From NCBI GenBank assembly GCA_027619975.1, contig JAQCGX010000002.1:1-64000 (forward strand): DNA of 64,000 nt, in the 5' to 3' direction. The DNA is from Nitrospinota bacterium. GTDB taxonomy: Bacteria; Nitrospinota; Nitrospinia; Nitrospinales; VA-1. The position numbers were made by a program, and so were the translations under genes. Under the pieces are notes generated by a model. That model was not told the DNA's origin, ran no database searches, and was given only the letters and a program-made list of their open reading frames with translations. The stretch's first letter is position 1, and each line of letters starts with the position of its first letter. Positions 33,078 through 64,000 of this stretch are shown piece by piece.

Positions 33078-33386
33078 TTAAATAATTGCACTATTTTTTT
33101 GTTCCCTAATTTTCTGAACCATTTTATCTGCAATTTCCTCCGCTTTGACTTGGTAGGTTCCATTTTCCAGAATGTCACGAAACTTGCTGACTAATTTTTC
33201 GCGAACCTGTACCCCTGTCTTGGATTTTGTTGCTTCAGAAAGCGCTTCTGGCTTATGTGATAATGTCACGCGATCTATGGTTTCTGGCCCCTTGGATGCT
33301 GCCGTTTGAGCCGGAATTAAACGGGGGGACGAATTATTGACCAAACTTCGCCTGCTAATTTTTTGGGTGGGATCGAATTCTGTCAT
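33078..33386 (-). CDS. flgM: FlgM-like anti-sigma-28 factor
   Basis: 102 residues. The N-terminal half is low-complexity and disordered, as in FlgM. The C-terminal VREKLVSKFRDILENGTYQVKAEEIADKMVQKI matches the sigma-28-binding helices. FlgM inhibits FliA until the hook is complete. No flagellar structural gene is within this window, although a defective Maf/DUF115 gene lies at 61270. A 51-residue gene precedes it by 18 bases on the same strand. Confidence 0.8.
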   Translation of the reverse strand: MTEFDPTQKISRRSLVNNSSPRLIPAQTAASKGPETIDRVTLSHKPEALSEATKSKTGVQVREKLVSKFRDILENGTYQVKAEEIADKMVQKIREQKNSAII

Positions 33387-60443: not shown

Positions 60444-61205
60444 ATGCATTCCCAGAAAATTCCCGCTGACATAGAAGCTCAAATAGTTAATAGTTTTTCC
60501 AAATACGCGAAAAGCTATGACAGACACGCCCAATTACAAAAGACAATGGCGGAAAGGCTGGCTTCCATGTTGCCGGAACCGCTTCCTGCATGTGTGACGG
60601 AATTAGGTTGCGGTACAGGGGTGTTTACCCGTCACCTTTTAGCCCACCCTCTTGAAAGCCTGATACTAAATGATATTTCCCCCAGTATGATGGACCATCT
60701 TCAGGAAGGAATGACTCTACCTGAAAACACAAAACTTATAATCGGAAACGCGGAACGGGCTGAATTATACCCAACCGATCTGATTGTAGGCAATGCGGTC
60801 TTCCAATGGTTTGCCGACCCGCAAAAAACATTGAGCCATCTTCTCCAGTATATGAATCCCGAAGGAGCATTGGTTTTCAGTACATTTGGTCCCGGGACTT
60901 TAAAAGAATTCCGCGAGACAGGTTCCCTTAAAAGCCCCAACACTCTTTATTCCTTGCAAGAGTGGAAAACCATGATCGAACAAGCAGGGTTAATTTTAAA
61001 GGAATCGCATCTCGAAATTAGAAAAAGTTTTTTCCCTAACACACGAGCTTTGATCCGAAACCTGCAACAAATTGGCGCGGCCCCCCTTCGATTGCTCAAA
61101 CCGGGTGGATTGAGAAAGTTGATTCGAGAATATGATGAAAAATATATTATGGAGCAAGGGGTCTATGTCACATGGGAATTACTCTACTTTTCAGCCCATC
61201 GGTAA
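60444..61205 (+). CDS. bioC: Malonyl-ACP O-methyltransferase
   Basis: 253 residues. SAM methyltransferase that masks the malonyl carboxyl so that fatty-acid synthase can build pimelate. Motif I is ELGCGTGVFTRHLL, and the N-terminal FSKYAKSYDRHAQLQKTMAERL is characteristic of BioC. VGNAVFQWFADPQKTLSHLL is also typical. It ends the bioF-bioH-like-bioC operon (98-base gap before it). Confidence 0.92.
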   Translation: MHSQKIPADIEAQIVNSFSKYAKSYDRHAQLQKTMAERLASMLPEPLPACVTELGCGTGVFTRHLLAHPLESLILNDISPSMMDHLQEGMTLPENTKLIIGNAERAELYPTDLIVGNAVFQWFADPQKTLSHLLQYMNPEGALVFSTFGPGTLKEFRETGSLKSPNTLYSLQEWKTMIEQAGLILKESHLEIRKSFFPNTRALIRNLQQIGAAPLRLLKPGGLRKLIREYDEKYIMEQGVYVTWELLYFSAHR

Positions 61206-61269: not shown

Positions 61270-63144
61270 ATGCACTTAGAAATCTTCAATAAAAACCTTG
61301 CCCATTTGAAAGAAATAGATCCGGCCCTGGCTGATGCGGTTCAGTCTATTCATCCTGGGGATCGATATGTTGTCAGTTGATCCAAAAAAAGACCACCAAG
61401 TTTATCCCTTAATTTGCCGGATGGAAATCGAATCACCCTTCATAGTTCATACGATCCTGTTAAAGAAGCAGGGCGATTTGTCAACCTGTGCGATGTCGAT
61501 AAGTATACAAACTTTATCGTTCCCAGCATTGGATTGGGGTATCACATTCAGGAGCTTATTGAAAGGGTCCCTCGCTCCAGTAAAATAATAATTATTGAAA
61601 AGGAAATAGAGGGTCTATTTTGTTGCCTGGCGAATATCGACTTCACTTCCGTCATAACACATCCCGGCGTCCAGTTTCAAATTGGAGTGGCTGCTTCTTC
61701 TGTGGAAGAAATTCTGGAACCAAACCGGATTCGTTTTTCTTTAAACGGTTACGCAACCGTAAAATTCAAACCCCTTGTGAATGCGGAAATTGAGTACTAT
61801 TCGCAACTCTTAAAAAAAATAGATGCGGTATTTAATGAAACCCAGATAGATCTTAAGACCCAGGCGGCATTTTCAAAAATATTCTATCGGAATATATTTG
61901 AGAACTGGATAAATATTATTAGCAGTCCGGGAGTCCGCTCCCTGAAAAATAAATATTTTGGGATTCCGGCAATAGTTGTTTCCGCCGGGCCGTCTCTTGA
62001 TAAAAATATCGCGCTTCTAAAAGAATCCTCTAATAGAGTTTTGGTGATAGCTGTGGCGACCGCCTTAAAACCACTGATAAAAAATAATATTGCAGTCGAT
62101 TTTGTGGTTGCTGTGGACCCGGAGGAATCCACTCTTCAGTTCTTTGATTTTGAAAATATTTCGCAAAATACCTGGCTGGTTTTTGATCCCTGTGTCCCTG
62201 CTTCTGTTGTAAATAAATTTCCAGACAGGAAAATACGGATTGATTCTGGAGTATACCTTTCCCGTTGGCTTGCCTGCAGGCTGGAAGAAGATAACTTTTT
62301 GGGGAAAACTCTTTCCGTTGCCCATGCGGCGTTTCTTTTGGCCCGCTATCTTGGATGCAGTCCAATTATTTTGACGGGTCAGGATTTGTCATTCAGTCAA
62401 AGTCGCTTACATTGCGCCGACTCCCATTATGATCAAACTCGAAAAGATAAAATTGGTTCGAGACACCCTTTTAAGGAACTCGATGATAATAAATTTGATG
62501 AATTTTCGTCTTCTTTTAAAGCCGTCAAGAATATATTTGGAAAGGAAGTCGATACGACATCGGCTTTAAATGCCTATAAAGATGTATTTGCAGATTAAGT
62601 GAATGGCCAGACCTCAATTTATAATGCAACCGAAGGGGGACTTCCCATATCCGGCGCTCCCAATATAACTCTCCGCGAAGCAATAAATACGTTCTGTTCT
62701 GATAATAATAGATCTCGAATTAATGCGCTGTCAATTGATGTCCCAAAGCCAAAGCAATTGGAGACTATTCATTCGGAACTGATCAAACAATCGGAACTAT
62801 TCGACAAAATTAGTCAGAATACCCAGAAAATGCAATCAACTTATAGAGTGTCTGACGCCATGACTGATGACCTTAAGAAAAAATTTGTCGGGAAAATGGA
62901 TAAATTTTATCAATTTATTTTGGATCAGCCGGATACACTGAAGTTAATGCAAGGCTATTCGTATCTGGGGTTTATCGAATGGAATCAGTAAAGCAGTCGG
63001 ATTTCTCTGAAAGAAACAATGGGCGAGGAATCTGAAATTCTTGCAGATAAGTTTATTAGAGATAAAAAATTTTTGGATATCCTGGGGGAAACGGCTGATT
63101 CTTTAAGAAACGCCTTCAAGAAAATGGCCAGCGAGATCAATTAA
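61270..63144 (+). pseudogene. Maf/DUF115 (motility-associated glycosyltransferase-like) gene with three in-frame stops
   Basis: One continuous frame of 624 codons from ATG 61270 to TAA 63142 is broken by TGA 61378, TAA 62596 and TAA 62989, with no frameshift. Family blocks lie on both sides of each stop: NLAHLKEIDPALADAV before the first; RITLHSSYDPVKEA, PSIGLGYHIQEL, PAIVVSAGPSLDKNI, VDFVVAVDPEES and LTGQDLSFSQSRLHC after it; YNATEGGLPISGA after the second. Maf proteins add pseudaminic/legionaminic acids to flagellin. The last part (ADKFIRDKKFLDILGETADSLRNAF) is a helical tail. Confidence 0.8.
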
Positions 63145-63152
63145 AAATTCAA

Positions 63153-64000
63153 TTATAACCTCACGGCCTCCAGCAAGCTGGCGCCATGATCCAAAGTGAA
63201 CCGCTTTATGGAACCAAATCCTGCACCTTTAAGGAGCGTTTCAGTCTCCTTGAAGGTGTACGTTTTTCCGGTGGCAGTGAACATCAACATGGTCAATGAA
63301 AATAAGGCGGCATCATAAGGTTCCGTCCTATTTTCATTGAGGAAAAGGTCCACAAGAAGAAACCTCCCCCCTTTTTCCAGGGAGCGATGAATCTTCTTAA
63401 AGAGAAGCCTGTTTTCTTTTGGATTATAAATATGCAGGATATTGGAAAAGAGAACGGTGTCAAACCCCTTTCCATAATCCGTCTGGAAGAGGTCACCTTC
63501 CATAAAAGTGAAGCGGGAAAATACGGGCGAAGTCTCTAGAATCTTTTTAGCCACTTGAATAGTGACTGGCCGGTCAAACAAAGTGGCGGTTGCTTTTTTA
63601 TCCTTTCGCAGTATAGCGGCACTGTAAGAACCCGGCCCTCCCCCAAGATCAAGCAATCGTCTAACCGGTTTGCCTGCAACGCAGGTAGCCAGCTTGGCCG
63701 AGTAGAATGCACTTCTTTCATGCATTGCGTGGGTGAAATACCATCTAAAGTCGGCATCATCTTCCCCTTCGTGCGGTGACGGGTTCCGCCCACTGCGGAC
63801 TATTTCCAACAAGTTAGCCCACTCTTGACGGTTTTCCGAGCGCAATTTCACCATGCCCTTTTTATAATGAGGGCTGGATTCGCACAGATGTTTGTAGGTC
63901 TCAGGTGTATTTTTAAACTGAGTTTTGATTTTGGAAAGAGCCCCGATCGCTACTAATGCATTCAGAAGCATTTCCGTTTCCAACGGCTGGCTGTTAGCTT
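63153..64000 (-). CDS. SAM-dependent O-methyltransferase (5'-truncated at window edge)
   Basis: The reading frame is open through the window end, so the true start lies outside. Visible residues cover the end of a dimerisation domain (GALSKIKTQFKNTPETYKHLCESSPHYKKGM) and a whole catalytic domain: motif I LLDLGGGPGSYSAAIL, LFDRPVTIQVAKKIL, FDTVLFSNILHIYNPKENRLLFKKIHRSL and GGRFLLVDLFLNENRTEP. This matches the ASMT/hydroxyneurosporene-type family 2. The substrate is unknown. Confidence 0.85.
   Translation of the reverse strand, partial: ANSQPLETEMLLNALVAIGALSKIKTQFKNTPETYKHLCESSPHYKKGMVKLRSENRQEWANLLEIVRSGRNPSPHEGEDDADFRWYFTHAMHERSAFYSAKLATCVAGKPVRRLLDLGGGPGSYSAAILRKDKKATATLFDRPVTIQVAKKILETSPVFSRFTFMEGDLFQTDYGKGFDTVLFSNILHIYNPKENRLLFKKIHRSLEKGGRFLLVDLFLNENRTEPYDAALFSLTMLMFTATGKTYTFKETETLLKGAGFGSIKRFTLDHGASLLEAVRL

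What the first reader, a model, noticed from the sequence alone, without database searches (positions are those of the whole stretch)
61270..63144. Maf/DUF115 gene with three nonsense codons but an otherwise intact 1.9-kb frame
Sequence shows the same frame continuing through TGA, TAA and TAA with conserved family motifs after each. A neutrally decaying gene of this length would be expected to gain indels too. Either the inactivation is recent, the stops are read through, or the gene has been kept as segments. It pairs with an orphan flgM in the same window, hinting at partial loss of glycosylated flagella.
Basis: partly seen in the sequence, partly recalled or inferred. Interest (0 to 1): 0.6.

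Follow-up and report, generated by a model that had tools for sequence, protein, structure and literature searches.

The report
Recently broken flagellin-glycosylation gene (maf)
A spare gene for decorating the bacterial flagellum has very recently been broken by three stop codons in a relative of marine nitrite oxidizers, at a spot where its close relatives have repeatedly lost the same gene; this is ordinary gene decay caught early, not a new genetic trick.

Summary
The frame 61270-63144 is open except for TGA (61378), TAA (62596) and TAA (62989), with no frameshift. Intact full-length orthologues exist in many Nitrospinaceae. They include a syntenic congener (G003, 57% aa identity) and a closer sister copy (L186, 76% aa, no indel in the gene). 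None shares any of the stops, so they arose on this lineage alone.

Best explanation: a young unitary pseudogene of an accessory Maf (DUF115/MptE-like) flagellin glycosyltransferase. The gene between bioC and an O-methyltransferase is ancestral in the family but dispensable: gone in three congeners, half-deleted in G011. Relaxation is barely detectable (own-branch omega 0.25 vs 0.15, p=0.08; conserved sites untouched), so inactivation is recent, roughly 10-30 neutral substitutions ago. Absence of indels is unremarkable at that age.

Read-through is unlikely: no stop-reading tRNA among 42, no conserved stops, no structure 3' of them. Functional segments are unlikely: the family's NATEGG motif lies after stop 2. 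Assembly error at the surveyed background rate cannot give three stops here. The flgM is not orphan, but the assembly lacks flgI, flgK, flgL and a close flgG, so wider flagellar erosion is plausible.

The parts
61270..63144 (+). maf (DUF115/MptE-like flagellin glycosyltransferase) pseudogene, 624 codons plus stop
61270..61377 (+). segment 1 (36 codons) before the first stop; Maf N-terminal domain fragment
   Evidence: weak PF20157 match; alignment
61378..61380 (+). in-frame TGA; column very variable in the family (96th percentile of entropy)
61381..62595 (+). segment 2 (405 codons) with the MptE-like core; longest remaining ORF starts at TTG 61414
   Evidence: PF01973 E=1.3e-41
62596..62598 (+). 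in-frame TAA, ahead of the conserved NATEGG motif
62599..62988 (+). segment 3 (130 codons), C-terminal region with NATEGG
62989..62991 (+). in-frame TAA
62992..63144 (+). segment 4 (50 codons) and the normal terminal TAA at 63142
60444..61205 (+). bioC-like gene, intact left neighbour; fixes the ancestral bioC-maf-MTase order
   Evidence: TIGR02072 E=6.8e-50 (slightly under its cut-off)
63153..63983 (-). O-methyltransferase, intact convergent right neighbour
   Evidence: PF00891 E=6.7e-29

Best explanation
This is a recent unitary pseudogene. The gene coded a Maf-type (DUF115/MptE-like) glycosyltransferase that puts nonulosonic-acid-type sugars on flagellin (function inferred from family). It sits in the ancestral Nitrospinaceae order bioC-maf-O-methyltransferase and is accessory: several relatives lost it outright. 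In this lineage one nonsense mutation inactivated it, and two more followed (order unknown) within about 10-30 neutral substitutions, too short for visible missense decay or indels. Translation stops at residue 37, or at residue 443 from an internal start, before the conserved NATEGG motif, so no working enzyme is expected. Shown: stops, intact orthologues, absence of relaxation at conserved sites, repeated loss elsewhere, other intact paralogues in the genome. Inferred: glycosyltransferase function, lack of product, order of events, and a link to wider erosion of the flagellum.
For: Intact syntenic copies: G003 and sister L186; 27 Nitrospinaceae-type loci have an uninterrupted open frame, one cut by its contig end. 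None of the aligned orthologues has a stop at these positions. Codon ML: gene omega about 0.18; own branch 0.25 vs 0.15 elsewhere, p=0.08. Relative rate 48:39, p=0.39; at columns with >=80% consensus 2 vs 2 departures. Dispensability: bioC and the MTase adjoin without maf in G001 and G002, with a 374-bp gap and no recognisable remnant in G004, although G001 and G002 keep flgF-flgL and G004 a flgL-sized gene; in G011 the middle of maf is deleted. Paralogues in the own genome are intact: C3 (609 aa) and C19 (480 aa). Other erosion: flagellin-like gene with one TAA, DUF115 gene with a frameshift, flg genes not found.
Against: Mild tension: three stops are rather many for so little missense decay. 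At N=20 neutral substitutions P(>=3 stops)=0.04, or 0.18 for two or more beyond the founding one, while P(as few conserved-site departures)=0.035-0.05. No indel at all. The neutral-tail codon fit peaks at about 62 substitutions, which the conserved columns reject, so the dating is loose. No expression data.
Confidence: 0.85

Rival explanations
1. Assembly or sequencing error in a metagenome-type assembly; the real gene is intact.
For: The genome is in 72 contigs. Internal stops are inflated in poorly covered assemblies (PMC11017572). Four other genes in about 300 compared carry a single stop and two seem frameshifted, while the reverse comparison shows no convincing case in G003.
Against: At that background rate 0.025 stops are expected in 624 codons; P(>=3)=2e-6. 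The stops are clumped in one dispensable gene; neighbours within 40 kb of G003 synteny are intact. The first stop codon differs from the sister codon at more than one base, which a single miscall does not give.
Confidence: 0.07
2. The stops are suppressed or read through, so a full-length Maf is made at low level (regulatory in-frame stops as proposed by Belinky et al. 2021, PMC7918605).
For: The reading frame and conserved residues are preserved after each stop; omega is far below 1; somewhat more stops than missense decay.
Against: 42 tRNA genes found, none with an anticodon reading UAA, UAG or UGA. Two of three are TAA. Stops are not conserved in any relative, whereas that paper relied on stops shared between species. 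No stable 3' structure at any stop (z -0.15, +1.82, -0.33). Stop columns not significantly biased to variable sites (p=0.14). Low omega over the long pre-stop branch is expected anyway.
Confidence: 0.04
3. The gene survives as separately translated segments, above all the 394-aa MptE-like core (TTG 61414 to TAA 62598), with coupled re-initiation at GTG 62599.
For: TAA is followed directly by GTG. Shorter DUF115 proteins of 305 and 480 aa exist in the family.
Against: The core would lack the invariant NATEGG region (N458-G463 in G003 numbering). No relative has this split. Segment 3 has no known domain above cut-off.
Confidence: 0.03

Closest known systems
Maf flagellin glycosyltransferases (motility-associated factor; e.g. 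Aeromonas caviae Maf1, PMC4065374)
   Same: MptE-like core PF01973 and Maf N-terminal domain PF20157 in the intact orthologue; NCBIfam flagellin modification protein PseD matched at E about 1e-30 but far below its cut-off; solved relative 5mu5.
   Different: Here broken by three stops; located by bioC, not in a flagellin or sugar locus.
Young bacterial unitary pseudogenes (nonsense-inactivated)
   Same: Lineage-specific stops, intact sister orthologue, little extra missense change.
   Different: Three stops and no frameshift: slightly unusual but within chance.
In-frame stop codons with purifying selection (Belinky et al. 2021, PMC7918605)
   Same: In-frame stops, preserved frame, omega below 1.
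   Different: Those analysed were shared between orthologues; these are private to one genome and threefold.
Phase-variable maf genes of Campylobacter (PMC13130089)
   Same: maf genes switched off, with effect on motility.
   Different: Phase variation there acts through repeat tracts; here point nonsense changes.

Membership tests
Maf/DUF115 flagellin glycosyltransferase | MptE-like domain (PF01973) | tested here: met
   142.7 bits vs cut-off 34.6 in segment 2; 149.2 in the G003 orthologue
Maf/DUF115 flagellin glycosyltransferase | Maf N-terminal domain (PF20157) | tested here: inconclusive
   22.9 bits, just under cut-off 23.5 in segment 2; above it (38.4) in intact G003
Maf/DUF115 flagellin glycosyltransferase | transfers nonulosonic sugar to flagellin | not testable with these tools
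   needs biochemistry
Recent pseudogene | orthologue intact in close relatives, lesions private to the lineage | tested here: met
Recent pseudogene | relaxed selection on the lineage | tested here: inconclusive
   omega 0.25 vs 0.15, p=0.08; conserved columns 2 vs 2; as expected if very recent
Functional read-through gene | stops conserved among relatives | tested here: not met
Functional read-through gene | suppressor tRNA or recoding signal | tested here: not met
Functional read-through gene | full-length product | not testable with these tools
   needs proteomics or ribosome profiling

The most novel reading that the evidence does not exclude
A gene with three nonsense codons is still translated across or around them, so purifying selection continues; the slight excess of stops over missense decay and the lack of indels would reflect this.
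Probability: 0.04. Interest if true: 0.6.

Novelty: new member of a known kind. Interest (0 to 1): 0.17.

Why it matters
It is a clean snapshot of an early step of gene loss at a locus that Nitrospinaceae lose repeatedly: intact copy, multi-stop copy, half-deleted copy and clean absence can all be seen among relatives. It also points to possible erosion of the flagellar system in this lineage. It needs no new mechanism.

Tried and rejected
Read-through: tRNA survey of the own genome, 3' structure, conservation of stops, variability of stop columns; all negative. Segment function: no split homologue, motif lost. Assembly error: survey of about 420 kb against G003; the background rate is too low for three stops in one gene. 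First idea that the C4 gene (L059:12020-12868) was flgL was wrong: it is a short flagellin paralogue, and true flgL is the 506-aa gene of the flg operon. First count of two stops in it was wrong too: one lies upstream of the start. Many 'interrupted' genes of the survey were antisense or start-extension artefacts. A neutral-tail codon fit suggested about 62 neutral substitutions, but conserved columns reject so many; I give the lower range. A plasmid search found nothing. Two tool calls failed or were useless.

Full report
OBSERVATION. The frame starting at ATG 61270 runs to TAA 63142-63144 and is interrupted by TGA 61378, TAA 62596 and TAA 62989. Similarity to relatives runs through all stops. 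The window is the start of contig C2 (135,678 bases) of a 72-contig, 2.93-Mb genome estimated 96.6% complete. Named relatives of the gene lie in Nitrospinaceae/Nitrospina, and the window shares gene order with the congener G003 over at least the 40 kb compared.

IDENTITY. Segment 2 carries the MptE-like/DUF115 core (PF01973, E=1.3e-41). The intact orthologue in G003 also has the Maf N-terminal domain PF20157 above cut-off. NCBIfam's PseD flagellin modification model matches at about 1e-30 but far below its cut-off, so the precise acceptor and sugar are not established. The nearest solved structure by profile is 5mu5. In Aeromonas caviae Maf1 is needed for flagellin glycosylation before chaperone binding and export, and glycosylation is needed for filament assembly (PMC4065374). 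Function here is inferred from family.

INTACT COPIES. Of 40 relatives, 17 hold a long orthologue, none with a stop inside. The public genome scan gave 27 Nitrospinaceae-type loci, each with one uninterrupted frame, one of them cut by its contig end. The closest is L186 (contig JAJFIL010000120.1, filed under an Alphaproteobacteria MAG but collinear with the window at 80% nt identity over 3,985 bases). It has the full 624-codon gene, no gap against the window, and 76% aa identity. No orthologue has a stop at any of the three positions.

SELECTION. Three-taxon codon ML (window, L186, G003) gives omega about 0.18; window branch 0.25 vs 0.15 elsewhere, p=0.08. Tajima-type counts are 48 vs 39 (p=0.39). 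At columns with >=70% consensus among outgroups the window departs alone 2 times, L186 3 times; at >=80% 2 and 2. A Poisson comparison of stops, conserved-site departures and frameshifts puts the time since inactivation at very roughly 10-30 neutral substitutions. At N=20, three or more stops have P=0.04, two or more beyond the founding stop P=0.18, so few departures P=0.035-0.05, and no frameshift P=0.2-0.45 under assumed indel:substitution ratios of 0.1-0.05. This is mild tension, not a refutation, and the finding was picked as an oddity in the first place. A pure codon fit of a neutral tail peaks at 62 substitutions but is flat and conflicts with the conserved columns.

LOCUS HISTORY. bioC-maf-O-methyltransferase is found in several genera of the family. 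In G001 and G002 bioC and the methyltransferase adjoin without maf; in G004 a gap of about 374 bp has no recognisable maf. G001 and G002 carry complete flgF-flgL operons and G004 a flgL-sized gene. In G011 only N- and C-terminal pieces of maf remain, and its flagellin-like gene has a stop. So the gene is repeatedly lost, also where flagella are kept.

FLAGELLAR STATE. flgM at 33078-33386 is not orphan. FlhA and the surrounding fli/flh genes are intact, and three flagellins are intact. FlgI, FlgK and FlgL of G003 find no orthologue in the own genome, and FlgG only distant paralogues. The operon is absent both next to coaD (its G003 place) and upstream of the gamma-glutamyltransferase gene (its G001/G002 place). 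Because gene order varies and the assembly is about 97% complete, a gap is not excluded. A short flagellin paralogue on C4 has one TAA, and a 305-aa DUF115 gene on C13 has a frameshift in an A-run.

WIDER CONTROL. Comparing about 300 genes (101,643 codons) with G003 shows, besides maf, four single-stop genes and two apparent frameshifts in the own genome, and no convincing case in the reverse direction. At that rate three stops in maf have P=2e-6. So maf is a real decay site, while some single stops may be errors (compare PMC11017572).

ALTERNATIVES. Read-through lacks a suppressor tRNA (42 tRNA genes), 3' structure and conservation of the stops. Segment function lacks the NATEGG region and any split homologue. 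Both remain unlikely but not formally excluded without expression data.

VERDICT. An ordinary, recent pseudogene of an accessory Maf gene in a lineage that may be losing its flagellum. Confidence 0.85; interest 0.17.

Noticed in passing
G000 C30 (L149:1-3600), C56 (L273): Flagellar operon flgF-flgL of congeners not found in the own assembly: absent next to coaD and upstream of the gamma-glutamyltransferase gene. Deletion or assembly gap.
   Followed up: partly
L059:12020-12868 (G000 C4): Short flagellin paralogue (283 aa in relatives) with a single in-frame TAA; intact in congeners.
   Followed up: yes
L063:6995-7908 (G000 C13): 305-aa MptE-like/DUF115 gene with a frameshift in an A-run; intact in congeners.
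   Followed up: partly
G000 C2:103494, C4:76261, C4:109595: Single in-frame stops in an MlaC-like gene, a FecR-like gene and a hybrid histidine kinase (names by sequence impression, no family search run); pseudogenes or assembly errors.
   Followed up: partly
G000 C5 near 76739: Apparent frameshift in a uracil-DNA-glycosylase-like gene compared with G003.
   Followed up: no
L268:3372-4230 (G011 C26): maf remnant with the middle deleted between N- and C-terminal pieces; the same genome has a stop in its flagellin-like gene (L269). A parallel, older loss.
   Followed up: partly
L186 (JAJFIL010000120.1): Contig filed under an Alphaproteobacteria MAG is collinear with this Nitrospinaceae window; probably mis-binned.
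   Followed up: no
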